NCBI GenBank assembly: GCA_005799495.1
Contig: SYGP01000031.1
Location: 1-64,000 of the forward strand
Length of the DNA: 64,000 nt
Origin: Planctomycetia bacterium
GTDB lineage: Bacteria; Planctomycetota; Phycisphaerae; Phycisphaerales; SM1A02
Reading direction: 5' to 3'
The notes under the pieces were generated by a model. It was given only the letters and a program-made list of their open reading frames with translations, made no database searches and was not told the origin of the DNA. Position numbers and translations under genes: made by a program. This document shows, piece after piece, positions 43,151-58,394 of the stretch; positions within the stretch are counted from its first letter, which is position 1; the number at the start of each line of letters is the position of its first letter.

Positions 43151-45016
43151 TCACCTCGGCACGGTACCCGATTTTGGATCACTCTTGGCGGGTTTTCCAC
43201 CACCAGTTGGAACGCCCTGAGTCGGAGTCAGTCCAGGAACCATCGCAGCGGCCGATGCGGGCTGGTCGGAGGTGACATCCTCGTCTTCGATGAACTCGGG
43301 TCGATCGGTCCGTTCCGCCTCTTGTCCAGCCTTCGCAATCGCCGCGATGATTCGGTCCTGTTCCACCTTGAAAGACGCAGGAATCGCCCCTTCGGAGGAG
43401 AGCGCGTAGATCGCACCGATGGTCTGGCTGTAGGTCATCCCGGCTCCCGGAGCGGGCCGGTCCGTCGTCTTGGTGTGCCCGAGGAAACGGATCAGCTCAT
43501 GCAGTTTCAGCGAGCACTTGTCCACGCGTGCTTCCATGCCGGACGCGGGGCGGAAGAAAATCGTTGCGAAATCCTCTCCCTCGTCCACCTTGATCAGCAA
43601 GTTGCCATCCCATGTTCGCAGGCTCATCGGAGCCTTCAGCGTCTGATCACTGCCAAACACCGTGATCGACGGCTTCCCCGACTGAGACACGTACACCATC
43701 GGATGCTGACTCGGCACCACATCCAGTCGGAACTTCTCATCCACCATGCTGCTCGTCACGATCGGATCGCCGCGCTTTCGCAGAGCCTCATAGGCAGCCA
43801 GTCGAATGTCAATGTCGCTGTCTTCCAGCAGCGGACGCAGCCCCAGGTCGATGGCAGGATTGATGCTCATCCGCTCCAGCAGTCGAATGGCTGGGACGCG
43901 CAGTTCGGCGCTTCCCGACTTTGCCATGTCGAGCAGTGGGGGCACCACCAGCGGATCATCCAGGCGCGCGCCTGCCTGCAATGCAGCGAATCGCGGTTGC
44001 TCTTCTGGGTAGTCGTACAGAGGGCGAATCGAGGTGAGACTCTTCGGTCCGAGCGCCTGCCAACGCATGCTTGCTGCCTGCGCTCCGCCGGGGTTGTTCA
44101 CGACCGCACGCGCAATCTCCGATGCGGTCGCATCGATCGGCCCTACGTTGATGGAGGTATGCCGAAGCATCTCGACAAACTCATCGCTGCGCGCATGCCA
44201 CGAGGGCGGTACATCCACCGTAATCAGTTCGCCCGTTCTGCCCTGAGCCGTATCGCCGCGCTGCCGAGGCTCGCGCGGGAAGTTCGAATTGATGGCGCTC
44301 GCGATCAGCCGTGCACGCGAGTGGCTCGGCGTGGCCATCACCAACTTCACTGGCAGTGACTTCAGCGTCTTGCCGCCGTTGAGCACCCGTCCGCTCAACT
44401 GATTGACGAGCGACTGGGCGCGGTCGGAATCATCCGCAAAGGGATTGACGATGATCGGTCCCTTCGCCTCCGCGACCGAGCGCACTTCACGGCTGCCAAC
44501 GAGCAGCACACCTGGTCGAAGCCCGGTGGTCCACAGGGTGCCACCCTCGAGGCTCGTGGTGCTCGTTCCGGGCGAGGCGTACACCCGCACATCAAAGGCC
44601 GTTCCCTTCGGTGCGCCCGCGGGAACAACTCCCTCCACGATCACGATCGCAGTGTCCTCCGAGTTCAGGAGTTGTTCAGGCTGCACGCCCCCAAGTCCCT
44701 CGCTTTGATCGCCCACACCGTACCGGAGCATTTCCCGAAGGATGTATTGCCGTACCTCAGCAGGGGCCGTGCGACTGCCCGTTCCCTTCAGCCCCACCAC
44801 GAAGCCGTAGCCGCGGACAACCACCGGCTGATAGCCGACAACCACCGTTTCACTCGCCACCGTTCCGCGCATGATCGGATCGACATCGAGTGGAATGGGT
44901 GGTCGTTCCGCGCGTGTCGGCGCAACGGTCGGATCAGCCCGTTCGATGTTGGAACACGCGCCCGCCGTAAAGGCAAGCAGGGTGGCAACGCAGCGCAGGA
45001 GTGGCAACTTGCTCAT
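43151..45016 (-). CDS. FlgI (P-ring)-like lipoprotein with HEAT-type repeats
   Basis: 621 residues. The signal ends at AGAC (Cys21), a probable lipoprotein site. Residues ~60-330 resemble the flagellar P-ring protein FlgI: VRGYGFVVGLKGTGSR, a LLNSEDTAIVIVEGVVPAGA segment, FDVRVYASPGTSTTSLEGGTL and LWTTGL parallel its conserved blocks. From ~370 two or three HEAT-like helix pairs follow (PLLDMAKSGSAELRVPAIRL; LLEDSDIDIRLAAYEAL), then a beta-rich C-terminal domain. No other flagellar gene is nearby, so this is probably an envelope protein using the P-ring fold, not a ring component. Confidence 0.75.
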   Translation of the reverse strand: MSKLPLLRCVATLLAFTAGACSNIERADPTVAPTRAERPPIPLDVDPIMRGTVASETVVVGYQPVVVRGYGFVVGLKGTGSRTAPAEVRQYILREMLRYGVGDQSEGLGGVQPEQLLNSEDTAIVIVEGVVPAGAPKGTAFDVRVYASPGTSTTSLEGGTLWTTGLRPGVLLVGSREVRSVAEAKGPIIVNPFADDSDRAQSLVNQLSGRVLNGGKTLKSLPVKLVMATPSHSRARLIASAINSNFPREPRQRGDTAQGRTGELITVDVPPSWHARSDEFVEMLRHTSINVGPIDATASEIARAVVNNPGGAQAASMRWQALGPKSLTSIRPLYDYPEEQPRFAALQAGARLDDPLVVPPLLDMAKSGSAELRVPAIRLLERMSINPAIDLGLRPLLEDSDIDIRLAAYEALRKRGDPIVTSSMVDEKFRLDVVPSQHPMVYVSQSGKPSITVFGSDQTLKAPMSLRTWDGNLLIKVDEGEDFATIFFRPASGMEARVDKCSLKLHELIRFLGHTKTTDRPAPGAGMTYSQTIGAIYALSSEGAIPASFKVEQDRIIAAIAKAGQEAERTDRPEFIEDEDVTSDQPASAAAMVPGLTPTQGVPTGGGKPAKSDPKSGTVPR

Positions 45017-45129
45017 GGCGGCCTTTGGTGCTCGTGCAGGACCGCCTCGGACGATACCTCAGGGAGCCGCCTCGCTGCTGCGTCCGTGTCATGATCATCC
45101 AGAAAGACCGAGGAATTGAACCGCGCCTC

Positions 45130-45157
45130 TTGCAACGTGCGCCACTGCGATTACCGT
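45130..45157 (+). promoter_or_regulatory. Promoter, leaderless geometry, of first SUMF1-domain gene
   Basis: TTGCAA (45130-45135), 16-base spacer, TACCGT (45152-45157), then exactly six bases to the ATG at 45164, so transcription should begin at the start codon. No Shine-Dalgarno is present. The same layout precedes the paralogue at 46281. Confidence 0.55.
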
Positions 45158-45163
45158 TTCGCC

Positions 45164-46198
45164 ATGGGACGGACGATGACACCTTGCACTTGCGTTGTCG
45201 GCGCAGCGATGGCTGTTGCGACCGTTTCCCTTGCCATCGCGGGCTCGGCGTGCCGCAGCGATCTCGTTGTGGACGGTGCGACAAATGGACTCGACCTGAC
45301 GGCTCTGCTTGGTGCATGGGGCACCGATGGCGGCTTGAGCGGCTGCGACATCGACGGCGACGGTGTCGTGGGCGGTTCAGACCTCACGATCCTCCTCGGT
45401 GCTTGGGGAGACTGTCCCACGAGTCCACTGCCATGGGCTGAAATCCTGCAGTGGAATCCGCCAGCATCCATCGTCACGGATCCTGCCATCCAAAGTGCGG
45501 TGCGCTCGCTTGACCTTCCATGGTTGGTGCGCGACTGGTGGGCCCAGATTGAACTCGTGCTCGTGCCGCCCGGGTCGTTCCTGATGGGGCGCAGCATCGG
45601 TGACCAGGAGGGCTACTCGTCTGAACTGCCGCGGCACTGGGTGACACTGACCACTCCGTTCTACATGGGGCGCACGGAGGTGACTCAGGAGCAATGGTCG
45701 CGGGTCATGCCATTCAACCCGAGTCAGTCGGCAAGCGATCCCGACGCCGCAACTCGCCCGGTCGAGAACCTCTCCTGGAATCTTGCGCAGCAGTTCTGCA
45801 TGGCAACAGGCATGCGGTTTCCAACCGAAGCAGAGTGGGAATACTCGTGTCGAGCTGGAACAACGGGTTCTCGCTATGGACCCCTCCTCGACATTGCGTG
45901 GTACTTCGACAATGCGTGGCAGGCCACCCGACCGGTCGGACTCCAGGCCCCGAACGCCCTTGGACTTCATGACTCCATCGGCAATGTGTATGAGTGGGTG
46001 CAGGACTGGTACACGCCCTTCACATCGGATTCGGTGATCGATCCCACGGGAGCCGCGGACGGATTCGACAAAGTGATCCGCGGCGGGAACCACGGGTCGG
46101 GGTCCAACATGTGCCGCTCGTCTCGGCGTGGGACCAATTCCCCCGCGGGCGCGAGTCCTGGGCTTGGGTTCCGCGTGGCCCGAAACGCGTTGAAGTAG
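45164..46198 (+). CDS. Secreted SUMF1/FGE-domain protein with N-terminal dockerin-like repeats
   Basis: 344 residues. The signal peptide (ending near AIAGSA) is followed by two EF-hand-like loops (about 40-85; second is CDIDGDGVVGGSDLTILLGA). The remainder is a formylglycine-generating-enzyme-type domain: LVPPGSFLMGRS, FYMGRTEVTQEQW, RFPTEAEWEYSCRAGT, LGLHDSIGNVYEWVQDWY and a final GLGFRVAR. The cysteine pair of catalytic FGE is not conserved (NMCRSSRR region has one Cys), so a binding role is more likely. An upstream TTG (45116) would lie within the promoter and is rejected. Confidence 0.85.
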   Translation: MGRTMTPCTCVVGAAMAVATVSLAIAGSACRSDLVVDGATNGLDLTALLGAWGTDGGLSGCDIDGDGVVGGSDLTILLGAWGDCPTSPLPWAEILQWNPPASIVTDPAIQSAVRSLDLPWLVRDWWAQIELVLVPPGSFLMGRSIGDQEGYSSELPRHWVTLTTPFYMGRTEVTQEQWSRVMPFNPSQSASDPDAATRPVENLSWNLAQQFCMATGMRFPTEAEWEYSCRAGTTGSRYGPLLDIAWYFDNAWQATRPVGLQAPNALGLHDSIGNVYEWVQDWYTPFTSDSVIDPTGAADGFDKVIRGGNHGSGSNMCRSSRRGTNSPAGASPGLGFRVARNALK

Positions 46199-46280: not shown

Positions 46281-47357
46281 ATGCCCCCAAGAATCTTCAA
46301 CATCGTTGCGCTCACCGCGACCGTGACATGTGGCGGCGTGCCCGCCCTCGCTGACTGCCCTGGCGATGTCAATGGAGACAACTCCGTGACCGGAAGCGAT
46401 CTTGGCATCATGCTGTCGGCGTGGGGCAGCAATGGGCAAGGTCAGTACATCACCGATCTCAACAACGATGGGAGCGTCAACGGCTCCGACCTGACGCTTC
46501 TGCTTGGCAGTTGGGGAACCTGCGTCATCGTTCCCGATTGGGCAACTGTGATCGAAGCTGTACCAGACCCAGCCGTCATCTACGACCGAGCGATCCGACT
46601 CGCAATCGAACAGAGCGGTTTCGCGTGGCGCGTGCGAGACAATCTCACACAGATGGAAATGCTGCTCGTCCCTGGCGGCAGTTTCATGATGGGATGTCCG
46701 ACTCCCAGTGGGTGTTACGAGGACGAGTACCCACTCCACCCAGTCACCATCAGCAGCAGCTTTTACATGGGCCGGTTCGAGGTCACTCAAGCGCAGTGGA
46801 TCGCGCAGATGAACTACAACCCGAGCTACTTTCAGGCACCGCAGTTTCCAGGCTCGATGGATCGCCCAGTCGACTGGGTTTCTTGGAACAACATCCAGGG
46901 GTTCATGAACGCCACGGGAATGATGTTGCCCACGGAGGCTCAGTGGGAGTATGCAGCGCGCGCAGGAACTTCGACCACCTACCACGGCACTGCAGCCCAG
47001 CCCGAGGGTTCGGATGATCCGGCGATCTTGCCGAGCACTGCTTGGTACAACACGGTTCCCGGTGATCCGCTCTATGGAACGCAAGTGGGCGGCGGCAAGT
47101 TGTCCAACGGCTTTGGGCTCCACGACATGACTGGGAATGTTTGGGAGTGGACGCGAGATCGCTACGCGGCCGATTACTACTCGTACAGTCCAGTCGTTGA
47201 TCCGACCGGCCCCATCACTGGCGGGTACCGACCCATCCGTGGCGGCGGCTGCGGCTATGACGCCGATTCTTGCCGAATCTCTGCGCGCGGCGAAGGTCCG
47301 ACCTCGTTCGCCCACGGCATGATCGGCTTTCGCGTGATTCGACCAAACGACAGCTGA
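46281..47357 (+). CDS. Secreted SUMF1/FGE-domain protein with N-terminal dockerin-like repeats, paralogue
   Basis: 358 residues, tandem paralogue of the preceding gene with the same architecture: signal peptide (cleavage near PALA-DC), two calcium-loop repeats (DVNGDNSVTGSDLGIMLSAW; DLNNDGSVNGSDLTLLLGSW), then the SUMF1 domain with LVPGGSFMMGC, FYMGRFEVTQAQW, LPTEAQWEYAARAGTSTTY, HDMTGNVWEWTRDRY and IGFRVIRP. Two cysteines near the end (GGGCGYDADSCR) are seven apart, not five as in catalytic FGE, so enzymatic activity is doubtful. Own promoter suggests independent expression. Confidence 0.86.
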   Translation: MPPRIFNIVALTATVTCGGVPALADCPGDVNGDNSVTGSDLGIMLSAWGSNGQGQYITDLNNDGSVNGSDLTLLLGSWGTCVIVPDWATVIEAVPDPAVIYDRAIRLAIEQSGFAWRVRDNLTQMEMLLVPGGSFMMGCPTPSGCYEDEYPLHPVTISSSFYMGRFEVTQAQWIAQMNYNPSYFQAPQFPGSMDRPVDWVSWNNIQGFMNATGMMLPTEAQWEYAARAGTSTTYHGTAAQPEGSDDPAILPSTAWYNTVPGDPLYGTQVGGGKLSNGFGLHDMTGNVWEWTRDRYAADYYSYSPVVDPTGPITGGYRPIRGGGCGYDADSCRISARGEGPTSFAHGMIGFRVIRPNDS

Positions 47358-47443
47358 TGCTCAGGCGGCTTCTGCCGCCGCACCCGCGGGGCCCCGTTGT
47401 CGTGAACGGCTGAGTCCTCCCACCTCAGTGTTCCATCATTCAG

Positions 47444-47517
47444 TGGGCGCTACAGGATTCGAACCTGTGACCCCTGCCATGTAAGGGCAGTGCTCTAGCC
47501 AGCTGAGCTAAGCGCCC
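47444..47517 (-). tRNA. tRNA-Val (TAC)
   Basis: 74 nt cloverleaf, no encoded CCA. Acceptor GGGCGCT/AGCGCCC, D stem GCTC/GAGC, anticodon stem CTGCC/GGCAG with loop CTTACAT (anticodon TAC), T arm ACAGG-TTCGAAT-CCTGT, discriminator A. Confidence 0.97.
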
Positions 47518-47818: not shown

Positions 47819-50800
47819 CTATGGAGTGGAGGGGGTCACTGCGATCCGCGCAATCCACGATCCCGTGGGGAATGCATAGGGGCGGAACTTCTCCTGCGTG
47901 CCGGCATCCTCCTGATGCAGGAGCGCCCGCTGGGGCCCCAGCTTGCTCGCAGCGGGGGAGTCGATGAGCGTGCTGGAATCTGTCGCGCTCACTTGGAAAA
48001 GCACCCGCCATGAAAACTCGCGAAGTGAGTTCCGGTCGATGGAACGCGCCAGATTCGTCGCAGTGTCCACCGTCACAAGCACATGAACGCCAACGGTCGG
48101 TCCATCGCGAAGGATCTCCGACAGCACCTTGTCGGTGCTGAGCGCCGCGGACCCACCAGAGCCGAATCCATAGTCATCCTCGTTGCGGCGAAGGGATCGG
48201 AATCGGTGCAGATTGTGGATGATGAGCAGGATGGGTTCGAGCCTTGACTCGCCCGTTGCCGTGCGACGACGCATCTCCTCCGCCACCTGGCCGACGAGCG
48301 CATCCGCCTCGCGAAACCCACCGCTGTCGCCACGCACACCGAGATCACGGCGCAGTCCCGCGAGTTTCTCGAACGCTGCATCGTCGACTGGCGTTCCATC
48401 GAGCAATACCACGCGCGCATCCGATCCGCACTGCGCAGCCATGGCAACCAGCGCTGCCGCAGCGACACCCGCGGACGCATCTTCCCGTTGCCCAACCACC
48501 ATCAGGTTGCTGCCAGACTGACGCCGCAGCGGAACACAGGTCGGCTCCTGCAGCGCAACGGCATCCCCGAGCCACAACTTCGGTGCAAGCACCATCTCGC
48601 GCCCACGCCGCGCGGCTGCTTCCTGCAGCAACGCATTGGCTTCGAGCAGCGCGGGCGCACTTCCTTCGAACACGATCATCGCAGGTCGGGGCGCACACGG
48701 ATGCGTTTGCTGCAGCGCACGCACCTCATCGAGCAGGCGATCTCGATCCGCATCCGCAAGCCACACGATCTGGAATGGATTGTTTCCCTCCACCAGCCCG
48801 CCTGCATCGTTGTAGATCGCCTCTCCAGGCCGCGACAGCAATCGTGCAGCGACATTGTCATCGGCAAGGATCAGCTGCGAATCCGCCTCGTTGCACTGAA
48901 GCGCGATGCGAACGCCCATCTGCCCCATGGTTGCCCGCGCGATCGAGTAAGCACCGCCCAGCGTCTGTGACCCGAGAACCACATGGATACCGAACGCGCG
49001 ACCCTGTCGGACAAGTCGGTCGAGCAGGAGCCCCGACTCCTCGGAGACCTTGTCATCTTCCGTGAACAGTTCCTGGAACTCATCGACGATCAACAGGGCC
49101 CGCGGCATTCGCTCTGCCGGCCGTGCTCGACGGAACCCTGCAAGATCCTGGACGCCGACTCCTCGGAACAGGTCTCCGCGCCGGCGCAGTTCGACATCCA
49201 AGCCGCGCAGGACCGACAGTCCGAACTCTCGGTCGCTTTCGACGGCGACGACACGCGCGTGCGGCAGGCCGTGCGCCGCATAGGTGCGGAACTCCACACC
49301 CTTCTTGAAGTCGATCAGCCACACCTCCGCCTGATCCGGAGAGAATCGCAGCGCGAGGTTCGTGATCAACGCATGCAACAGCGTTGACTTGCCCGAGCCT
49401 GTCTTTCCCGCGATGAGCGCATGCTGGCTCGTGCCGAATCCGAGCGCGAGCGACTGCAAGCGAGTGGCACCAGAACGACCGAGCGGAACGGTGATCGACT
49501 CATCGGTGGTCTCGCACCACCGCCGCGCGGCGTGTGGGGCAATCACGGAGAAGGGGACCTCGACCCGTTTGGCGCGCTTCGCCGAGGCAGCGATGCGCTT
49601 CAGCAGTCCAGTCGCTCGATCATTGGCCGGCGGCGTTCTCGCCGTGAAGGGGAAAGGCTCGAGTGGCGTGCCGGCCACGACAAACCGTTCTGACTGCCAC
49701 ATCAGGTTCAGGGCACGTGATCGAAGGTCCCGCAGATCCAGCTCGCTTGAAACGGGCTGCCGCGAGTCGTGCAGCAGAAGCGTGAAGACGCCGCACCGAG
49801 CCCCACTCGTGATGATGCTGTGGAGTCGCCGAAGCGCACTCTCGTTGAGACCGACGGGGAAGTCGGCCATGACGAGAAAGCGATAGGGTTCGGCAATCTC
49901 TCCCGCCTGGAGGTTGTACGCGGCGAGATCGGCGTACTCATTCCGCAGGAACTTCTGGATGACCGTCTCCATGTGCTCACAGAGATCGGCCAGCCGTTGC
50001 TCCATTTGCCGCTGATCGGTCCAGATGCGTTCGCCGACCAAGTGCTCCGCGTCGTCACTGAGATGCATGAATGCAGCAAAGCTCTCGCCGAGTCCGACTG
50101 GATCGAAGATCGTGAATCGGGCCTTGCCGGGCGGCAGCATCGTCAACAGCCGAAGCATCGACTCCTGGAGCAGGGCAATGCCTGCTTCGCGCCCCTCCAT
50201 CCCAGCCTCAATCAGCAGCGATGCCTGCGTCGGAATCGACAGCGTCACCGGCACGTGAACGATGCGTGGCGTGCCGGCGGGCCACGCCAACTCCGACGCC
50301 ACCGGCAACGCCCCCTTGATCGAGTGGAGCGGGATCGTGATGTGTCCAAGGCTGATGGCATTCTGCGGCTCGGTGCAGCCATCAAAGCGCTCCCACATGG
50401 GATCGTTCCATGGAAGGAACTGCCGATGCTCTCGATCGCCGAGCCACCGGAGGTCTCGAACCACCTGCCCCTGTGCCGTCTGCCATGCGGCGCAGAACTC
50501 GGAACGACGCGCTTCGACAACGGCTGCGATTTCTCGGGTTCGGGCGGCATGGCGATCCATCTCACTCTGCAGCGCACTCGCATGCCGAGCGTCGATCTGG
50601 TTCATCAAGCTTTGCACCGAGGCGGCTGAACTTGCTTGGATCTGCCGCAGTTGTCCATCGTTCTTCGCGCGAAGTTCAGCGGCGGCCGCCTTCACACGCT
50701 CGAGTCGCTGCGGCAACTGCGACTGCAACGCATGCCGCCGTTCAGCAAGGCTCGAGCGCACGCTTCCCACCTCCTTCTCATGTCGCTCCTTTGCCGCTTC

Positions 50801-51745
50801 CGACAATCGCGACCGCGTGGCATCGCTCCACGCCAGCATTGCCTTGAGCAGTTGGGTGAGCTGCGCTTGCTGCTTGGAAACCTCGTGCGCAGTGGAACGC
50901 AAGGCGCGACCCGCCGAGAGAAAGATGGAGACCTGCAACAGCGCGCCGAGCGCAAGAGCAGTTGCCAGGATGATCGGTCCCGTCCAATCCAGCCAACCCA
51001 CCGTGAATGTCACCACCCCAGCCGCCAGCAGCAGCAGGAGCAACAGCCCAGCCGCATGCGCAATCTTGTTCCGCAGAATGAGCGCCAGTGACTTGCGGCG
51101 GACGCGGCCCAACAGTTCATTCGCGGCGGATGCAGCGGCCGTGAACTCCGCCAGAGGTTCGGCTCCAAGACTCGGCGCTTGGGGAGTCGCGTCCACCGTG
51201 GGCACCACGAGCGCCCGACCGAGGAGATCGCGAGCTCGGGTGAGGCTGGCATGCGCTTCGTCCGAGGTCGCTTGAAGTTGTTTGGTCCGCTCCTCGTGTT
51301 CCTTCTCGAAGGAGGGCTGCTGCTCTTCGTAGATCGAATCCGCCGTCCAGATCTTCTCCTCCATGTGGCGCTGCAACTTGTCGATCTCGGACTCGAGCTG
51401 ATCCTCCGCGCGTGCCAGCGTGCGCCGTTCTTCCTCGTCGATCTTGGCTGCATTGGCCGCATGCCGAGCGGTGGCCTGCTGCCATGCCGCTGCAGCCTTG
51501 CCATCCACTTCTGCGCGAAGTTTTTCCCGCGCTGCCTCCAACCGTTTCAGCTCCGAGCCATGCCGCGACAGCTCGGGTGGCTCGACGGACTGCACGAACG
51601 CGGCAAGCGACGCCTCTGCCTCGAGGCGGGCTGCGGGGGATGACACGATGAGCGAAACCACCTCATGTGCCACTTCCGACAGAGGTCGCTGTTCGATGTC
51701 GGCCGAAGGAGATCGACCATGTGTCGCGGCAGCCTGCTCAGTCAC
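47819..51745 (-). CDS. FtsK/EccC-like membrane ATPase of a type VII-like locus
   Basis: 1308 residues. Order: N-terminal coiled coil (~55-200), two membrane helices (~232-250 and 255-276), second coiled coil (~280-430), then three FtsK/SpoIIIE-type modules. Module 1 (~465-670) lacks a P-loop (IEAGMEGREAG). Module 2 (~750-1000) is intact: Walker A GKTGSGKS (780-787), Walker B LLIVDEF (884-890), and VVLGSQTLGG. Module 3 (~1055-1300) is degenerate (GQREDASAG; LLIIHNLH). Two helices plus serial ATPase modules is the EccC/EssC plan. GTG start overlaps the 75-residue gene (GTGA) and follows GGAGG. With the WXG100 gene upstream, it is probably the export motor. Confidence 0.85.
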   Translation of the reverse strand: MTEQAAATHGRSPSADIEQRPLSEVAHEVVSLIVSSPAARLEAEASLAAFVQSVEPPELSRHGSELKRLEAAREKLRAEVDGKAAAAWQQATARHAANAAKIDEEERRTLARAEDQLESEIDKLQRHMEEKIWTADSIYEEQQPSFEKEHEERTKQLQATSDEAHASLTRARDLLGRALVVPTVDATPQAPSLGAEPLAEFTAAASAANELLGRVRRKSLALILRNKIAHAAGLLLLLLLAAGVVTFTVGWLDWTGPIILATALALGALLQVSIFLSAGRALRSTAHEVSKQQAQLTQLLKAMLAWSDATRSRLSEAAKERHEKEVGSVRSSLAERRHALQSQLPQRLERVKAAAAELRAKNDGQLRQIQASSAASVQSLMNQIDARHASALQSEMDRHAARTREIAAVVEARRSEFCAAWQTAQGQVVRDLRWLGDREHRQFLPWNDPMWERFDGCTEPQNAISLGHITIPLHSIKGALPVASELAWPAGTPRIVHVPVTLSIPTQASLLIEAGMEGREAGIALLQESMLRLLTMLPPGKARFTIFDPVGLGESFAAFMHLSDDAEHLVGERIWTDQRQMEQRLADLCEHMETVIQKFLRNEYADLAAYNLQAGEIAEPYRFLVMADFPVGLNESALRRLHSIITSGARCGVFTLLLHDSRQPVSSELDLRDLRSRALNLMWQSERFVVAGTPLEPFPFTARTPPANDRATGLLKRIAASAKRAKRVEVPFSVIAPHAARRWCETTDESITVPLGRSGATRLQSLALGFGTSQHALIAGKTGSGKSTLLHALITNLALRFSPDQAEVWLIDFKKGVEFRTYAAHGLPHARVVAVESDREFGLSVLRGLDVELRRRGDLFRGVGVQDLAGFRRARPAERMPRALLIVDEFQELFTEDDKVSEESGLLLDRLVRQGRAFGIHVVLGSQTLGGAYSIARATMGQMGVRIALQCNEADSQLILADDNVAARLLSRPGEAIYNDAGGLVEGNNPFQIVWLADADRDRLLDEVRALQQTHPCAPRPAMIVFEGSAPALLEANALLQEAAARRGREMVLAPKLWLGDAVALQEPTCVPLRRQSGSNLMVVGQREDASAGVAAAALVAMAAQCGSDARVVLLDGTPVDDAAFEKLAGLRRDLGVRGDSGGFREADALVGQVAEEMRRRTATGESRLEPILLIIHNLHRFRSLRRNEDDYGFGSGGSAALSTDKVLSEILRDGPTVGVHVLVTVDTATNLARSIDRNSLREFSWRVLFQVSATDSSTLIDSPAASKLGPQRALLHQEDAGTQEKFRPYAFPTGSWIARIAVTPSTP

Positions 51746-51969
51746 AGGCCACCTCCTTCGCTGCACTCGCTGCGGGCGCGGGCGATCGACTCTCCAAGCT
51801 GGTCCAGCGCAAGAATCGCCAAGCGTACGGATTCCTCCGCGCACTCCACGACCTCATGCTGCACACGGTCGCTCTGGGCATCATTCCACTGGGTTCGAAT
51901 CACGCTCCACTGAGCCTGGAGGGTACGAACGGCATCCTTGAGTTTGGCTTTGTGGGAAGAGTCGCTCAT
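51742..51969 (-). CDS. Small helical protein of the WXG100/FtsK locus
   Basis: 75 residues, predicted mostly helical. LKDAVRTLQAQWSVIRTQWN is followed after a short turn by a second amphipathic helix with regular Leu/Val spacing, giving a helix-turn-helix hairpin like a short WXG100-fold protein, although no W-x-G turn is obvious. Overlaps both neighbours by 4 bases, so it is translated with the ATPase. Could be a second secreted partner or a chaperone; function unknown. Confidence 0.7.
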   Translation of the reverse strand: MSDSSHKAKLKDAVRTLQAQWSVIRTQWNDAQSDRVQHEVVECAEESVRLAILALDQLGESIARARSECSEGGGL

Positions 51970-52568
51970 GAAGATGCTCCATCCGCATCCGTGAGGTCAC
52001 TCCCGGATCGGCGCATCGATGCCTTGGACTCCACGACAGCCGAATCCGTGGTGGGTGCGTCGACGATGGGAGAGCTCTGCGCCGCAAGGTATGCGTCGAC
52101 CGACTCCGCCATCCTGTTCAGAGCGGACACCGCAGCAGGTGCAACCTGATCCACGAATGTCCCGAGAGAACCCATGCCGGCACGGAAGTTCGCCAGGACC
52201 CGTGGATACTCCATCACCCAGTACCGAGTCCGCCGCAAACGATCCTCCGCAGAGGCAAGTGCCGCCTCGGCGCGCGAGACGGCCTTTCGCTCATCAACCG
52301 TTGAGGGCGGTCGACCATCCGCCGTCGGCTGCATCTGCTTTCGCATCAGTTCGGAGCGCGCCTCATTCAGTCGTGTCGTGCGAAGACGCACCTGGCGTTC
52401 CCAACCCGATTGCGCCTCACCCGCCAACCACATCGCAAATCGTTCCGAATCCGCCTGCGACTCCTCGATGACCGATGCGATGCTGCGCGCAGCCTTCACG
52501 ATGACTGCCTTCGCATCCAAGATCGCCTTCGTATCACGGATGTTGGCGCCGGAATCCACGGGGCACAT
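51966..52568 (-). CDS. Coiled-coil protein of the WXG100/FtsK locus
   Basis: 200 residues, helical throughout: long charged heptad-like stretches (about 15-75 and 88-125), then a hydrophobic Gly-containing segment (FRAGMGSLGTFVDQVAPAAV) and a polar, Ser/Asp-rich tail. No signal peptide. The length, helical N-terminus and location suggest a substrate or adaptor of the putative export system. It does not match a family I know. Start overlaps the WXG100 stop by one base. Confidence 0.7.
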   Translation of the reverse strand: MCPVDSGANIRDTKAILDAKAVIVKAARSIASVIEESQADSERFAMWLAGEAQSGWERQVRLRTTRLNEARSELMRKQMQPTADGRPPSTVDERKAVSRAEAALASAEDRLRRTRYWVMEYPRVLANFRAGMGSLGTFVDQVAPAAVSALNRMAESVDAYLAAQSSPIVDAPTTDSAVVESKASMRRSGSDLTDADGASS

Positions 52569-52840
52569 CAGCGCTGCTGCAAATACTCATCGATGCGGTC
52601 CGCCTTGCGAAGGAGGAATGGAATGTGCTCTTCGCTCGCTTTCAGCAAGCGCTGGAGAACCTTGATCGTCTGCTCAAACTCCTCCGCGAACTTCTGCTGC
52701 TCCTGATCGCGCCATGTCTGCTGCAGCGTGTTGAGGCGCGCATGCACCGTGGCGATGCCGCCCTGCATGTCCAGATTGAACTTGCGCAGTTCCGCAGCAA
52801 AGCGCCGAAGTTCCATTGGATCGACGACCGCTCGCGCCAT
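52568..52840 (-). CDS. WXG100-family protein (type VII-like substrate)
   Basis: 90 residues, size and pattern of the WXG100 superfamily: helix one (LRRFAAELRKFNLDMQGGI), turn with Trp in QTWRDQEQQKF (W-x-D in place of W-x-G), helix two (FAEEFEQTIKVLQRLLKASE), and a C-terminal RKADRIDEYLQQR resembling the Y-x-x-x-D/E-type tail region. These hairpins are exported as dimers by FtsK/EccC ATPases. First gene of a four-gene unit. TAGACT lies six bases before the ATG (52847-52852), a possible leaderless arrangement; no clear -35. Confidence 0.82.
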   Translation of the reverse strand: MARAVVDPMELRRFAAELRKFNLDMQGGIATVHARLNTLQQTWRDQEQQKFAEEFEQTIKVLQRLLKASEEHIPFLLRKADRIDEYLQQR

Positions 52841-52872: not shown

Positions 52873-54327
52873 GTGCGCTGCTCAAACCTCATTGGTGGGC
52901 GTTGGATGGAGCCGTGTGGCGGCGCTTCGCTGCCCGTGCGTGATGCCGCCACCGGCGAGGTGATCGCACATGTCCCAGCGGCAACAGCCGATCAAGCCAG
53001 GGCTGCGGTCGATGCCGCGTCGGCTGCACTCCCGAAGTGGGCAGGCACCCCCGTGGCGGTCCGGGCTGACCTCCTGCGCCGCTGTGCGAGCCGGAGTCGT
53101 GCTCAGCGGGAAAGACTCGCCGACATCATCACCGCTGAGGTCGGGAAACCCCTCGCCGAGTCGCTCGCCGAAGTCGACTACAGCGCCGACTACTTCGACT
53201 CGGCTGCCGACGAGTGCGGTCGACTGCACACGGAAGTGCTCCCGCCGCGCCGGTCCGGTCGAGTGCAGTCTGCAGAACCGCAGCCGATCGGCGTCGTCGC
53301 GGCGGTGACGCCTTGGAACTTCCCGCTGGCCATGCTTGCGCGCAAGACGGCGCCCGCACTCGCCGCAGGCTGTACGCAGGTCGCAAAGCCAGCCGAAGAA
53401 ACGCCACTCAGTGCGTTGGCGCTGGCGGAGATTCTCGTGGTGGAGGGACTTCCAGATGGTGCCCTCAATGTGATCACGGGTGCACCCGAGCCCATTGTCC
53501 ATGCCTGGCTGGCCGATGGTCGGGTTCGGAAGGTCTCCTTCACGGGTTCGACGGAAGTGGGGCGGCTGCTGATGCGCGGAGCGGCAACGCAGCTCGTGCG
53601 GCTGTCGCTCGAACTCGGCGGGCACGCGCCGTTCCTCGTCTTTGCCGATGCGGACATCTCGGGGGCGGTCGATGCGGCGATCCTCGGCAAGTTCCGCGTG
53701 GCTGGGCAGACCTGCATCTGCCCCAACAGATTCATCGTTCATGCATCCGTTGTCCAGGACTTCGGCGAGCGCTTGGCCACGGCTGCGGCAGCGCTGCCCA
53801 TCGGCTTGGGCAGAACGCCAGGCGTCCGTGTGGGACCGCTCATCAGCGATGAGGCCGTTGCACGCGTCTCTGCGCATGTCAAGGATGCAGTCGATCGCGG
53901 CGGCCGTGTGCTGACGGGCGGCGCCACTGTCCGCGTTCCTCACTGCGTGGATCGGTTCTTCGCACCGACGGTCATCGCGGGCGCAACGCCGTCCATGCGC
54001 TGCTTCAACGAGGAGACATTTGGACCGCTTGCACCCATCGCATCGGTGGAGAGTGACGATGCGATGATCCGCATGGCGAACGCCACACCGTACGGACTGG
54101 CGGGGTATGCGTTTTCCTCAGACCCAGATCGCGTGGCGTGGGCGGCGAAGCACTTGCAGTGCGGGATCGTCGGATGCAATACGACGGCGGTCAGCGATGC
54201 CTACGCGCCCTTTGGCGGTCGCGGTTGGTCGGGATTCGGTCGTGAGGGCGGTCGGTGGGGGGTCGACGAGTACCTCGCCTGGAAGTACGTCTGCGAAGCC
54301 CGCAGCGAACCGCTCACATCACGCTGA
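52873..54327 (+). CDS. NAD(P)-dependent aldehyde dehydrogenase, succinate-semialdehyde type
   Basis: 484 residues from GTG at 52873. The aldehyde dehydrogenase core is intact: VTPWNFPLAM, KPAEETPLSALALAE, FTGSTEVGRLL, LELGGHAPFLVF (general base Glu) and AGQTCICPNRF (catalytic Cys), ending FGREGG and EYLAWKYVC, which is the pattern of GabD-type succinate-semialdehyde dehydrogenases. The exact substrate is not fixed. Starts 32 bases from the divergent WXG100 gene; TTG codons farther upstream would overlap that gene. Confidence 0.92.
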   Translation: MRCSNLIGGRWMEPCGGASLPVRDAATGEVIAHVPAATADQARAAVDAASAALPKWAGTPVAVRADLLRRCASRSRAQRERLADIITAEVGKPLAESLAEVDYSADYFDSAADECGRLHTEVLPPRRSGRVQSAEPQPIGVVAAVTPWNFPLAMLARKTAPALAAGCTQVAKPAEETPLSALALAEILVVEGLPDGALNVITGAPEPIVHAWLADGRVRKVSFTGSTEVGRLLMRGAATQLVRLSLELGGHAPFLVFADADISGAVDAAILGKFRVAGQTCICPNRFIVHASVVQDFGERLATAAAALPIGLGRTPGVRVGPLISDEAVARVSAHVKDAVDRGGRVLTGGATVRVPHCVDRFFAPTVIAGATPSMRCFNEETFGPLAPIASVESDDAMIRMANATPYGLAGYAFSSDPDRVAWAAKHLQCGIVGCNTTAVSDAYAPFGGRGWSGFGREGGRWGVDEYLAWKYVCEARSEPLTSR

Positions 54328-54353
54328 ATGTTCCAACGCAGCCTCGCGACCGT

Positions 54354-56264
54354 TCAGTCGGTCGCAGGTGGCAGTTCGATGGTGCCTTCCGTCTCGCCTT
54401 CACCTTCCATGAAACTGGTGAGACGCTGGCGGCGAACGGGATGCTGCAACTTGCGGAGTGCCTTGCTCTCGACTTGGCGAACGCGCTCGCGCGTCACCTT
54501 GAAGATGCGTCCGACCTCCTCCAATGTGTATGTGTGACCATCGCCGATCCCGTACCGCAGCTTGAGAATCTCACGCTCCCGGTAGGTCAGCGTCTTCAGC
54601 ACATCGTTGATGCGCCCACGCAGCATCTCGCTTGCGGCAGAAATGCTCGGCGCTTCCTGCCGCTCGTCTTCGATGAAATCACCGAAGTGCGAATCCTCAC
54701 TCTCGCCCACCGGGCGATCGAGGGAGATCGGATGCCGCGAAATCTTCAGCACACGCTTGACCTCATCGACAGGCATCTTGGCGCGCGCAGCGATCTCGTC
54801 ATGGTTGGGCTCATGTCCGAGCTCCTGAAGCAGGTGCTTTTGAATGTTCCGCAGCTTCGACATCGTCTCGATCATGTGCACGGGCACTCGAATCGTGCGT
54901 GCATGATCCGCGATGGCGCGAGTGATCGCCTGACGGATCCACCCCGTCGCGTAGGTGGAGAACGTGGAGCCACGCTTGTACTCGTACTTGTCGACCGCAC
55001 GCATGAGTCCCGTGTTGCCTTCCTGGATGATGTCGAGGAAGGGGAGACCACGATTGCGGTACTTCTTCGCGATGGACACCACCAAACGCAGATTGCCGCC
55101 TGAGAGCGCGCGCTTGGCCAGTTCATGCTCGACGAAAATGCGCTGAATCGCCTTCACGCGCTTCGCAAGATCTTGCGGCGTTTCGAGCACCAGTCCCTGC
55201 AGACCGAGCAACTCGTCGCGGCGCACCTGCACATCGTCCGCATCATGGTTCGCAGGATCCGAATCGGCCTGGGCAATCTGGCGAGCCAGTTCGTCGCACT
55301 TGCGGTTCACGGAATTGAGCTTGCGCATGAGAGGCTGGATGCGCCCAGTCCGCAGGCAGCACTCCTCGATCAGCGTCGCCACGCGCCGACGATTCGCCCA
55401 GAGACGCTGTGTCACCACCTCCGCGCGTTCGGGAGGGAGATCACCCTCTTCGAGCTGCGCCCAGAGTCCCGTGTTCTGCTCGAGCTTCAGGCGAATGGTG
55501 CTCAGGTTGTACGGAATCCGTGCAGCGATGCGATCCTTGGCATTCGACTCGGCAGTCGAAATGCGCATGGTGCGGTCGAACGGCAGCGAACCATCATGCA
55601 CCTGCTGCAGAATGTCGACCGCCTGCCGTGCGCAGTAGTCGCTCTCGAGCACCATCCGGCGGAAGATGTAACGACTCATCTCGATCTTCTTCGCCAGACG
55701 AATCTCCTCCTCGCGCGTGAGCAAGGGAATCGAACCCATCTGCGTCAGGTACATGCGGATCGGATCGTCAATGCGAACGGGCATGGCCTCTTGCACGAAG
55801 TCCAGCGATCCTTGCAGATCGTCGTCGAGCCCATCGTCTTCCGACGCGAACGCATCAGGACCGCCGGGTTGCAAGGAGTCTTGCTGACGCAGCTTGGCTC
55901 GAGCCGCGGCGACCGCAGTCGCAGCAGCACCCACGAGCGGGCGCGGAGCACTCGGCACCGCGGGAACAGCTGCGGCGTGCTCGGGGGCCTTTCGCACCTT
56001 CTTGTCGGTGTCTCGGAGGAACCGAAGGTCTGTCTGCAGATCAGCAGGGAATGCCTTGCGCGATTCGCGGCGCATTTCGATCTCGTCAATCAGCGCAACG
56101 CCGTTCTGGGCAATCAGCACCAGCAACTCATCGAGCTGGTACGGATCGACGAAGTCGTCGGGCAGGCAGGTGTTGAGCTCCTCGTAGCTGATCCAACCAC
56201 GCTTGCGGCCGGCATGAAGGAGCGAACGGAGGACTGGATGCAGTTCCTGAAGCACGAGGCTCAT
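54354..56264 (-). CDS. rpoD: Primary RNA polymerase sigma factor (sigma-70)
   Basis: 636 residues. Region 1.2 ([22 protein letters not shown], ~166-187), a non-conserved segment, region 2 ([39 protein letters not shown]), region 3, and region 4 with [20 protein letters not shown]. All mark it as the group 1 factor, and it is coupled to dnaG (ATGA) as in the classical dnaG-rpoD operon. Unusual: region 2.3 reads [16 protein letters not shown], with Ser433 and Gly441 where most primary sigmas have aromatic residues (E. coli Tyr425 and Trp433). AGGAGA precedes the ATG. Confidence 0.96.
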
Positions 56265-58165
56265 GAATCGATTCTCCTGGCTAGAGCACTGGGTCTTGGC
56301 CCCGCCGCTCGGATCAGCGCGATCCGCTCGGCAAGAGCCTCTGGGGTTGAAACGAATGCAGGTTCCGACAAGGCATGCCTGCGACGGGTCCATTCCAGGG
56401 CCCGCGCAGCGGCAACCAACCCCTCGCGAGCCTTCGGCTCGTCGGGGTGACGCTCCTGCGCGGTCCGGAAGAGGGTGGTCACGAATGCCTTGCCAATGTC
56501 GTCGTCGAACTCGGCAAGGACATCCTGCACATTGAACGCAGATGCAGCTTCCATGCGCTCGAACACTGGTCTGTAGACGCGTGCGGCAGGGGCATCGGTG
56601 AATGATGCGGGGATCATGAACTCACTGATCGGCAGCGAATCGCCATCGACCGTGTCGATGCGGGACGCGGCGAGCACGGGCCACGCCAAGAGCAGTCCGA
56701 CAAACTCGCGCTCCGCCCGCGCCAATGCGGTCGTCGCTTCTGCAATCGGAGCATCGGAGACCGCGTCCGCAACTGCGGTTCCGTCGGTGCGAACCCGAAC
56801 GGTCGATCGTGCAAGTTCAGCCTCAATCTCACTCGTGGGAACGCCAGCGGCAGACGCAATGGAATCGATCACCATGCGGCGGCGGAGTCCATCGAGTCCC
56901 GCGAGCCCGAGGGACGCAAGCTTCGACACCATCGCTTGAATCGTCCGCTGACGCGCAGACATGCCGGAACGTTCCGTCAGTTCGCCGCGGAAACGCCCGA
57001 CCAGATGCACGAGCGCGTCCTGCGACGCGGCGATCGCTGCATCGAAACGCGCACGACCACCTGGTTGGCGAAGCAGTTCATCCGGATCGAGTTGATCAGG
57101 CAGTGTGCAGATGCGCACATCGATGGGAGCCGCAAAGAACACCTCGAGGGCACGGTCGGCCGCGCGTTGACCAGCCGCATCGCCATCGAACAGCAGCACG
57201 ACGGAGTCGCACAACCGCTGCAGAATCCGCGCGTGATCCCGCGTGAGCGCCGTACCGAGCGTCGCGACGGCGTTCTCGATGCCCGCTCGGTGACAGGCGA
57301 TGACGTCGGTGTACCCCTCCGTGATGATGGCGGTGCGCGAATCGATGATGGCGCGCTTGGCCAGATGAATGCCGTACAGCGATCGCGACTTGTGGAAGAT
57401 GGGCGACTCTGGACTGTTGAGGTACTTCGGCTGATCTTCGGGATCGATTGCACGCGCGCCGAATGCCACACAGCGACCGATCTCATCGTGAATGGGGAAC
57501 ATCACGCGGTTTCGGAAGCCATCGACGAGGCGTCCACCGCGAGAACGCAGGAGACCAGCCGACTCGAATGCTGCGCGGATCGCATCGGGTTCGAGCCCGT
57601 CGTCGCCGCCCGCACGCTGGTTTGCTGCAAGGCGTTCCACATGAGCCACCAGCGCATCACCTGCGGCGGGCGCAGCACCGAGCCCGAAACGCTCGATCAT
57701 GGCAGGCTCCATGCCACGCGCCGCAAGTGCGTTCGCCGATGCACCTCCGAGCGACGGATCCGCAAGGCACCGCACGAAGAACCGAAGCGCAGCTTCGTTG
57801 GCGCGCCGCAGGGCGGACACTGCCTGACCGTTGCCAGAATGGCCGTGATCTCCCTGTCGCGGACGAAGCTCAATCCCAGCTCGCTGCGCGAGGAATCGCA
57901 GCGCCTCGATGAACTCCATCTTGTGGTACTTCACCATGAAGTCGATGGCGTTCCCGCTCGCCTGACAGGAGAAGCAGTGATAGAACGCATGTCCCTTGTG
58001 CGTGATGACGGAGAAGGACGGGCGGTGATCCTCGTGGAAAGGACAGAGCCCAACATGCTCGCGGCCCTTCTGCCGCAGTGCCACCGATTCGCCGACGAGC
58101 GACACCAAATCGGTCGCGTCGAGGACGCGGTCGCGGTCTGTGGTGTCGTGGCGGGGGGATGGCAT
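56261..58165 (-). CDS. dnaG: DNA primase
   Basis: 634 residues. Makes RNA primers for replication. The N-terminal zinc finger is intact ([13 protein letters not shown] then [18 protein letters not shown]), followed by the RNA polymerase basic motif around [16 protein letters not shown], the TOPRIM core [15 protein letters not shown] and [17 protein letters not shown], and the C-terminal helicase-binding part. Its stop overlaps the rpoD start. A long upstream region (58166-58631) contains a candidate non-coding RNA or an unusually long leader. Confidence 0.97.
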
Positions 58166-58394
58166 GACGAAAATCCTGGGCGGGCTCTTGGGAATCAACT
58201 CAGACAAGTCACAACGGGAAAGGCAGAATCGGGGCTGAACTACCGACCATTTCGGTTGTTCATAAACCTTTGCTTCACAAACTGATACGAGAAAGAGGGT
58301 AGCCCTGTTCTGTTGCTCCGACCGAGTTTGCGATCTCGTGGGCACCTTGCCCACAAGCATGCAGCAACACAGTCAGAAGCCGTTGCGTGCCATC
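58166..58394. other. Region upstream of dnaG
   Basis: About 230 bases without a gene, less GC-rich than its surroundings. A hairpin GTGGGC-ACCTT-GCCCAC lies at 58338-58354. No convincing promoter for dnaG alone was found here, so dnaG may depend on transcription from 58638-58666 reading through, or on a non-standard promoter. Confidence 0.4.

What the first reader, a model, noticed from the sequence alone, without database searches (positions are those of the whole stretch)
47819..52840. Minimal type VII-like secretion island: WXG100, coiled-coil, small helical protein and a three-module FtsK/EccC ATPase
Four genes are coupled by 1- or 4-base overlaps (52568, 51966-51969, 51742-51745). The first is a WXG100-like hairpin with W-x-D; the last is a two-helix, three-module FtsK-type ATPase. 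EccB, EccD, EccE, mycosin, EsaA/EssA/EssB and YukD genes are all absent nearby. If real, it is a stripped-down system in a diderm planctomycete, with two uncharacterised partner proteins.
Basis: partly seen in the sequence, partly recalled or inferred. Interest (0 to 1): 0.8.

Follow-up and report, generated by a model that had tools for sequence, protein, structure and literature searches.

The report
Four-gene WXG–FtsK secretion-like unit
A planctomycete carries a compact four-gene unit that looks like the bare core of a type VII protein-secretion machine; a 2012 survey mentioned this kind of system in a footnote, and the two partner proteins worked out here make it testable.

Summary
The four genes are real, overlap as described, and form a conserved unit. 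The 90-residue protein is a true WXG100 hairpin with a W-x-D bend. [quoted passage not shown] The gene order held in all 33 loci examined closely. Across 61 related genomes, WXG and ATPase co-occur except in three incomplete ones. The 75-residue protein is a second, shortened WXG-type hairpin. The 200-residue protein is a long helical hairpin whose family extends to longer proteins on Rhodococcus and Caballeronia plasmids; a Helicobacter plasmid has a nuclease in that slot. This suggests a trafficked substrate. The kind is not new: Zhang et al. [quoted passage not shown] pylori HP0062 is the closest solved relative of the WXG protein. New here are the partner anatomy and a strongly conserved form without recognised toxin. 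Secretion itself is inferred.

The parts
52568..52840 (-). WXG100-type hairpin protein, 90 aa, W43-R-D45 bend, conserved C-terminus (K79, A80, Y86, L87 invariant)
   Evidence: Pfam PF06013 35 bits over cut-off 27.3; 25 of 25 aligned relatives match at E<=0.001; best solved relative HP0062, E 2.6e-11 with the family profile; mean column identity 76%; only WXG100 match in the genome at E<=0.01
51966..52568 (-). CC: 200-aa long antiparallel alpha-hairpin (helices 14-79 and 91-165) with a low-confidence tail; proposed trafficked substrate or adaptor
   Evidence: AlphaFold2 mean pLDDT 88.0; family profile also matches Rhodococcus (E 6e-8), Deinococcus (E 3.6e-4) and Caballeronia (E 2.7e-3) proteins above shuffled and reversed controls
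51742..51969 (-). SM: 75-aa short helical hairpin with W28-N-D30 at the bend and a Cys near the C-terminus (invariant in the 28 sequences, not in all 48); second WXG-type protein
   Evidence: AlphaFold2 mean pLDDT 90.8, helices 3-27 and 31-72; top VIA-align rows are HP0062 (Z 8.6, 8.1) and EsxB (Z 8.0); 14 of 48 relatives match PF06013 at E<=0.05; SM profile matches the window's own WXG protein at 2.9e-4
47819..51745 (-). Membrane FtsK/SpoIIIE ATPase, 1308 aa: charged N-terminal coil, two hydrophobic segments (about 220-282), second coil, three RecA-like modules; ATP site only in module 2 (GKTGSGKS at 780, DEFQE)
   Evidence: Pfam FtsK_SpoIIIE 2.4e-27; one P-loop motif in each of 26 relatives; D3-D2 and D1-D3 profile matches at 95.3 and 94.2% probability; hydropathy; best solved match 4nh0, E 1.5e-36, then EccC5
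52906..58360 (.). Neighbouring genes (aldehyde dehydrogenase, rpoD, dnaG); context only, not part of the unit
   Evidence: Pfam; matched beside the unit in 8 to 10 of the 20 other regions compared, against up to 20 for the four genes of the unit

Best explanation
The unit is a minimal type VII-like export system of the 'solo WXG + three-module ATPase' kind. The ATPase sits in the inner membrane by two helices, with its N-terminal coil and its three modules in the cytoplasm (the same topology as EccC/EssC; inferred). Module 2 hydrolyses ATP; modules 1 and 3 are degenerate and probably serve as docking or regulatory modules (inferred). The two small hairpins, WXG and SM, are Esx-like adaptors. 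They dock on the ATPase and hold the long CC hairpin, which is the trafficked substrate or the carrier domain of a substrate (inferred). In plasmid-borne relatives the CC slot holds longer proteins, in one case a nuclease with a gene annotated as an immunity-type protein (SMI1/KNR4) beside it, so there the machine probably moves antibacterial toxins. In Phycisphaerales the CC protein has no recognised toxin domain and the unit is nearly fixed in one family and strongly conserved, so it probably moves a housekeeping cargo across the inner membrane. How cargo would cross the outer membrane is unknown. Shown: the gene unit, its conservation and co-inheritance, the hairpin folds (as predictions), and the single P-loop. 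Inferred: membrane topology, complex formation, transport, and cargo.
For: WXG100 membership and nearest solved relatives HP0062 and EsxB. ATPase nearest to EccC-type chains among solved structures (4nh0, listed as 'Cell division FtsK/SpoIIIE' and T. curvata EccC by recall, then EccC5 and YukB) and among curated families (below their cut-offs). Three modules with one P-loop. Two hydrophobic segments in 23 of 26, one in 3. Gene order held in 33 of 33 close loci, counting the WXG of G032, and in 69 of 69 loci in which all three small genes were found. Co-occurrence in 61 genomes: ATPase in 40, WXG in 37, WXG without ATPase in 0; the three with ATPase but no WXG are 70, 74 and 82% complete. Of nine genomes whose ATPase locus lacks the small genes, eight have the WXG elsewhere. 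Helicobacter plasmid slot: WXG, WHH/HNH nuclease, gene annotated SMI1/KNR4, small gene, FtsK. CC-family similarity in Rhodococcus, Deinococcus and Caballeronia proteins.
Against: No secretion data exist. Of the plasmid or phage relatives' ATPases, Caballeronia, Deinococcus and the phage contig show no hydrophobic segment and Helicobacter and the two Rhodococcus rows only one weak window each, which weakens the analogy to a membrane export motor. No outer-membrane or channel partner is co-conserved beside the unit. WXG and CC are under strong purifying selection and no toxin domain was found in the 14 CC proteins scanned, so the antagonism suggested by relatives cannot simply be transferred. 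The Helicobacter nuclease shows no match to the CC profile, so that link is positional only, and its neighbour's SMI1/KNR4 label is the depositor's and got no NCBIfam match. Nine of 75 loci with enough upstream sequence have the ATPase without the small genes beside it, and one of those nine genomes has no WXG found at all.
Confidence: 0.6

Rival explanations
1. Not secretion: the unit is a membrane-anchored ATPase, gated by small WXG-type adaptors, that works inside the cell (for example on DNA, the division site or membrane stress), with the helical CC protein as a structural partner.
For: Nearly fixed in one family and strongly constrained; no channel or outer-membrane genes co-conserved beside it; conserved context beside dnaG and rpoD in the genus and some neighbouring genera; plasmid relatives without clear membrane segments; CC resembles many unrelated coiled coils, including Vipp1/PspA and Smc arms (not discriminating).
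Against: WXG100 proteins with EccC-type ATPases are, by established knowledge, export systems; a nuclease gene occupies the CC slot in a Helicobacter plasmid; the genome has a separate 886-aa FtsK.
Confidence: 0.25
2. A toxin-delivery (polymorphic toxin) system also in these planctomycetes, with CC itself the effector or with effectors encoded elsewhere in the genome.
For: Nuclease cargo in a plasmid relative and longer CC-family proteins in others; Imm33-like domains fused to some CC proteins.
Against: Only one CC-family match and one WXG100 match in the window's genome; no toxin domain in the 14 CC proteins scanned; purifying rather than diversifying selection on CC.
Confidence: 0.12
3. A phosphorothioate-type defence motor (SspH-like) or ordinary FtsK paralogue that merely lies beside small helical genes.
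For: PADLOC SspH profile matches the ATPase at 5.9e-28.
Against: In the ATP-site module tree the family groups with plasmid and phage ATPases (15 rows, 96/98 support), apart from the SspH-like and FtsK rows, though long branches make this tree rough; close co-inheritance with the WXG gene.
Confidence: 0.03

Closest known systems
[quoted passage not shown] 2012, PMC3482391, table footnote; passages seen)
   Same: Phylum named (planctomycetes), solo WXG, three-module ATPase with only the middle module active.
   Different: The passages I saw do not describe the CC and SM partner genes. In Phycisphaerales the unit is nearly fixed in one family rather than evidently mobile, and has no recognised toxin cargo.
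H. pylori HP0062 and the gene cluster around it (PMC3397514, passages seen)
   Same: HP0062 is the best solved match to the WXG protein (E 2.6e-11); the paper says it has a WRD bend and that its gene clusters with an FtsK/SpoIIIE-domain protein.
   Different: Function unknown in that 2012 review; the neighbouring H. pylori genes were not available to read here.
T7SSa/T7SSb and T7SSc-j (Garrett et al. 2024, PMC11217815; abstract, Results parts 1-2 of 3 and found passages seen)
   Same: WXG100 plus FtsK-type membrane ATPase is the shared core; T7SSg is also small, with two WXG100 proteins.
   Different: The described subtypes lie in Bacillota and Actinomycetota. Most have a YukD-like protein, and many have kinase, phosphatase, FHA or other membrane parts. 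YukD and EssB/YukC were not found in this genome, and the ATPase has one P-loop.
Caballeronia pSBC2-5 locus (L158)
   Same: A WXG100 protein, then a CC-family protein (E 2.7e-3), then a small protein, then FtsK.
   Different: Has an extra 113-aa gene and vWA, PP2C phosphatase, Ser/Thr kinase, CARF and AAA genes; the CC-family protein is 436 aa; the 76-aa gene is not matched by the SM profile; the ATPase shows no hydrophobic segment.

Membership tests
Type VII secretion system (canonical) | WXG100/Esx protein | tested here: met
   PF06013 35 bits over 27.3; 25 of 25 relatives
Type VII secretion system (canonical) | Membrane FtsK/SpoIIIE ATPase of EccC/EssC type | tested here: inconclusive
   Closest among solved chains and NCBIfam, hydrophobic segments, but under the NCBIfam cut-offs (110.9 against 346.55 bits for EccCb) and in a tree clade apart from the EccC and Enterococcus rows (long branches)
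Type VII secretion system (canonical) | More than one ATP-binding module in the ATPase (recalled as typical of EccC) | tested here: not met
   One P-loop motif in each of 26; the Streptomyces EccC row shows three P-loop-like motifs
Type VII secretion system (canonical) | YukD/EsaB ubiquitin-like protein (most subtypes; absent in T7SSd) | tested here: not met
   None in the genome at E<=0.1, B. subtilis control positive
T7SSb | EssB/YukC | tested here: not met
   None in the genome at E<=0.1; four control genomes rang, B. subtilis among them, one over the cut-off
T7SSa | EccB | tested here: inconclusive
   None found, but no control genome rang
T7SSa | EccD, EccE, mycosin | not tested
   No call made
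Type VII secretion system (canonical) | ATPase-dependent export of the WXG protein | not testable with these tools
   Needs an experiment
Solo-WXG 'mobile T7SS' of Zhang et al. 2012 | Solo WXG protein, not fused to a toxin | tested here: met
   90 aa; single WXG100 match in the genome
Solo-WXG 'mobile T7SS' of Zhang et al. 2012 | Three FtsK/HerA modules, only the middle one active | tested here: met
   (activity judged by motifs only)
Solo-WXG 'mobile T7SS' of Zhang et al. 2012 | Mobility | tested here: inconclusive
   35 of 37 genomes of the family but patchy outside: 5 of 24 sampled in the rest of the order, 61 of 392 drawn from the phylum, which include some of the same genomes
SspH defence motor | ATPase groups with SspH | tested here: not met
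   Separate clade in the module tree (one SspH-like row, long branches)

The most novel reading that the evidence does not exclude
In Phycisphaerales the unit is a domesticated, toxin-free secretion engine made of one ATPase, two Esx-like hairpins and one long-hairpin cargo, able to export without any other dedicated channel part. It would be the smallest known type VII-like machine, built on the same core as a system that includes H. pylori HP0062.
Probability: 0.3. Interest if true: 0.8.

Novelty: new variant of a known kind. Interest (0 to 1): 0.55.

Why it matters
If it exports proteins, it defines the minimum core of type VII secretion and extends it to diderm bacteria. The four-part set (WXG, long hairpin, short WXG-type hairpin, ATPase) gives concrete pairs to test, and could help to explain HP0062, whose structure was published in 2009 and whose function was unknown in the 2012 review seen here.

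Tried and rejected
Island or recent insertion: not supported in the genus, where flanking genes are conserved too. SspH-like or housekeeping FtsK: disfavoured. CC fold comparison: Foldseek gave no match at E<=0.001, and VIA-align Z values up to 10.5 spread over many unrelated coiled coils, so no fold relative is claimed. Profile-profile comparison of SM with WXG gave only 22.8% probability and of CC with WXG 8.1%; the SM claim rests. Foldseek alone for SM gave no match at E<=0.001, though its first three rows are Esx proteins. CC family in the Helicobacter nuclease, the Rhodococcus R79 203-aa protein and the phage 349-aa protein: not supported (the phage protein E 3.4). SM family: Caballeronia 76-aa and Deinococcus 94-aa not supported; Helicobacter 77-aa E 5.9 and Rhodococcus 73-aa E 0.44, both above 200 of 200 shuffles but not significant; Deinococcus 144-aa supported, E 4.3e-6 (all). 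Pfam and NCBIfam found no domain in the Caballeronia 436-aa or Rhodococcus 314-aa proteins; a PD-(D/E)xK-like stretch in the former is my reading by eye. Module 1 against module 2 directly failed (0.9%); module 1 is linked through module 3. Phages: no record covers 80% of the ATPase; best hit L163, unannotated. PHROGs and PADLOC gave nothing beyond weak or FtsK-type matches.

Literature: searches are. In their listings and in the passages I opened I saw no paper that describes CC and SM as partners; most listed papers were not opened, among them the two that mention HP0063-HP0066. Reports that I recall on WXG100 outside Gram-positives (Sutcliffe 2011; Iyer 2004 on FtsK-HerA) were not seen.
Full report
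What is there. Four minus-strand genes overlap by 1, 4 and 4 bases: WXG (90 aa), CC (200 aa), SM (75 aa) and a 1308-aa ATPase. Purifying selection is strong in six pairs of close relatives, strongest on WXG, with dN/dS 0.014-0.040 (many dS values are near or above 1). The WXG protein passes the Pfam WXG100 cut-off (35 against 27.3 bits); all 25 aligned relatives match at E<=0.001. Its W-x-D bend is invariant, and it is the only WXG100 match in the window's genome. The closest solved chain is H. pylori HP0062 (E 2.6e-11), then EsxB.

The ATPase. Pfam FtsK_SpoIIIE matches at 2.4e-27. NCBIfam's best matches are EccCb, EccCa and EssC, all far below their cut-offs. The best solved match is 4nh0 (listed as 'Cell division FtsK/SpoIIIE'; T. 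curvata EccC by recall), followed by EccC5 and YukB. Profile comparison links module 3 to module 2 (95.3%) and module 1 to module 3 (94.2%), while module 1 against module 2 directly fails (0.9%). Each of 26 relatives has exactly one P-loop motif, in module 2. By hydropathy, 23 of 26 show two segments before the modules and three show only one at the threshold. In a 21-row tree of the ATP-site module, ten planctomycete rows and five plasmid or phage rows form a clade (96/98) apart from EccC, an Enterococcus row, FtsK and an SspH-like row; the tool warned that long branches meet.

Conservation of the unit. In 33 loci from 33 genomes (the window's own included), CC-SM-ATPase stand in that order in all, and WXG precedes them in 32. 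In the 33rd (G032) the held stretch began too late; WXG lies just upstream. Three loci have extra DNA inside: L039 1349 bases between CC and SM, L047 844 between SM and ATPase, L048 353 between WXG and CC. These 33 are part of the 40 ATPase-bearing genomes among the 61 relatives. Seven were not examined (G007, G010, G022, G028, G029, G034, G036), and in at least one of them, G034, the WXG gene is on another contig than the ATPase. In 21 compared regions each gene of the unit has matches in up to all 20 others, while other neighbours have matches in at most 10. Of 105 further loci (L052-L156), 75 had at least 1300 bases upstream of the ATPase. Of these, 63 have all three small genes, three have CC and SM but no WXG found (in two the stretch begins at CC), and nine have none. 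Some of these loci come from genomes already counted (for example G053). In eight of the nine genomes the WXG gene lies elsewhere, in the ninth none was found; CC and SM lie beside the WXG in four of the eight. In all 69 loci in which the three small genes were found at E<=1e-8, order and strand agree.

Co-inheritance. Of 61 genomes, 40 have a family ATPase (35 of 37 in the same family, 5 of 24 in the rest of the order) and 37 have the WXG gene. None has WXG without ATPase. The three with ATPase only are G010, G028 and G029, at 70, 74 and 82% completeness. G003 shows only a 28-residue ATPase piece at a contig edge and was counted as absent. In a draw of 392 phylum genomes, 61 have the ATPase at E<=1e-30. 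A capped scan of named genomes (335 relatives, best 80 kept) gave loci whose record titles are mostly planctomycete; two are titled Verrucomicrobia, one Alphaproteobacteria and three just 'bacterium' (titles of metagenome bins, not verified).

The partners. SM is predicted as a short hairpin with W28-N29-D30 at the bend (mean pLDDT 90.8). The first three VIA-align rows are HP0062 twice and EsxB (Z 8.6, 8.1, 8.0), although Z near 8 is weak for helical bundles. Fourteen of 48 relatives match WXG100 at E<=0.05, best 2.5e-4, and no other family is matched by more than one member. The SM profile matches six WXG proteins at 1e-5 to 6e-4, the window's own among them, and others more weakly. CC is predicted as one long hairpin with a low-confidence tail (mean pLDDT 88.0). 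Some CC proteins have an Imm33-like domain at the C-terminus: of 13 long ones scanned (3, 10), eight are above the Pfam cut-off (L028, L043, L044, L066, L076, L127, L136, L140), two match below it (L094, L106) and three do not match (L091, L105, L118). The window's CC has none.

Relatives elsewhere. On a Caballeronia plasmid the order is WXG, 436-aa, 113-aa, 76-aa, FtsK. On a Helicobacter plasmid it is WXG (24.0 bits, under the Pfam cut-off), WHH/HNH nuclease, a gene annotated SMI1/KNR4, 77-aa, FtsK. On a Rhodococcus plasmid it is FtsK, 314-aa, 73-aa, WXG. The CC profile matches the Rhodococcus (6e-8), Deinococcus (3.6e-4) and Caballeronia (2.7e-3) proteins above 200 of 200 shuffles each, and not the Helicobacter nuclease; ten coils cut from the ATPases as controls scored no better than E 12. 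So the CC slot tends to hold a hairpin protein with variable C-terminal parts, as expected of a trafficked substrate; this step is inference.

What is known. Zhang et al. [quoted passage not shown] passages seen). [quoted passage not shown] The unit here meets the footnote's features except demonstrated mobility. A 2012 review notes HP0062's WRD bend and its clustering with an FtsK/SpoIIIE-domain protein (passages seen). Garrett et al. 2024 describe T7SSc-j in Gram-positives.

Verdict. The reading as a minimal T7SS-like unit is plausible but secretion is unproven, and a non-secretory role remains open. The kind was already noticed; the partner anatomy, the co-inheritance and the conserved form without recognised toxin are the additions.

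Noticed in passing
45116-46198 and 46281-47357 (+): Two tandem FGE-sulfatase (formylglycine-generating enzyme type) proteins, the second with a Dockerin_1 match, beside the unit.
   Followed up: partly
47443-47517 (-): tRNA-Val just downstream of the ATPase gene; no sign that it serves as an insertion site was looked for.
   Followed up: no
43151-45016 (-): 621-aa protein with a partial FlgI (flagellar P-ring) match, with matches in 9 of the 20 other regions compared.
   Followed up: no
L161 6425-9217: Rhodococcus R79 plasmid: a related FtsK-type ATPase in a run with Hsp70, TPR and GrpE genes and a small gene; its 203-aa neighbour is not matched by the CC profile.
   Followed up: no
L158 10223-17377: Caballeronia plasmid: the WXG-FtsK unit continues into CARF, vWA, PP2C, Ser/Thr kinase and AAA genes, reminiscent of the kinase/phosphatase/vWA parts of T7SSc.
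   Followed up: no
L163 1-7647: Unannotated faecal phage contig with an E1/ThiF-like protein (by eye), an FtsK-like ATPase and a 349-aa protein with a W-N-D stretch and an HELGH motif.
   Followed up: partly
L139 (G300): Solo ATPase copy with two in-frame TGA, possibly decayed or an assembly error; the WXG gene lies about 182 kb away on the same contig, with CC and SM beside it.
   Followed up: partly
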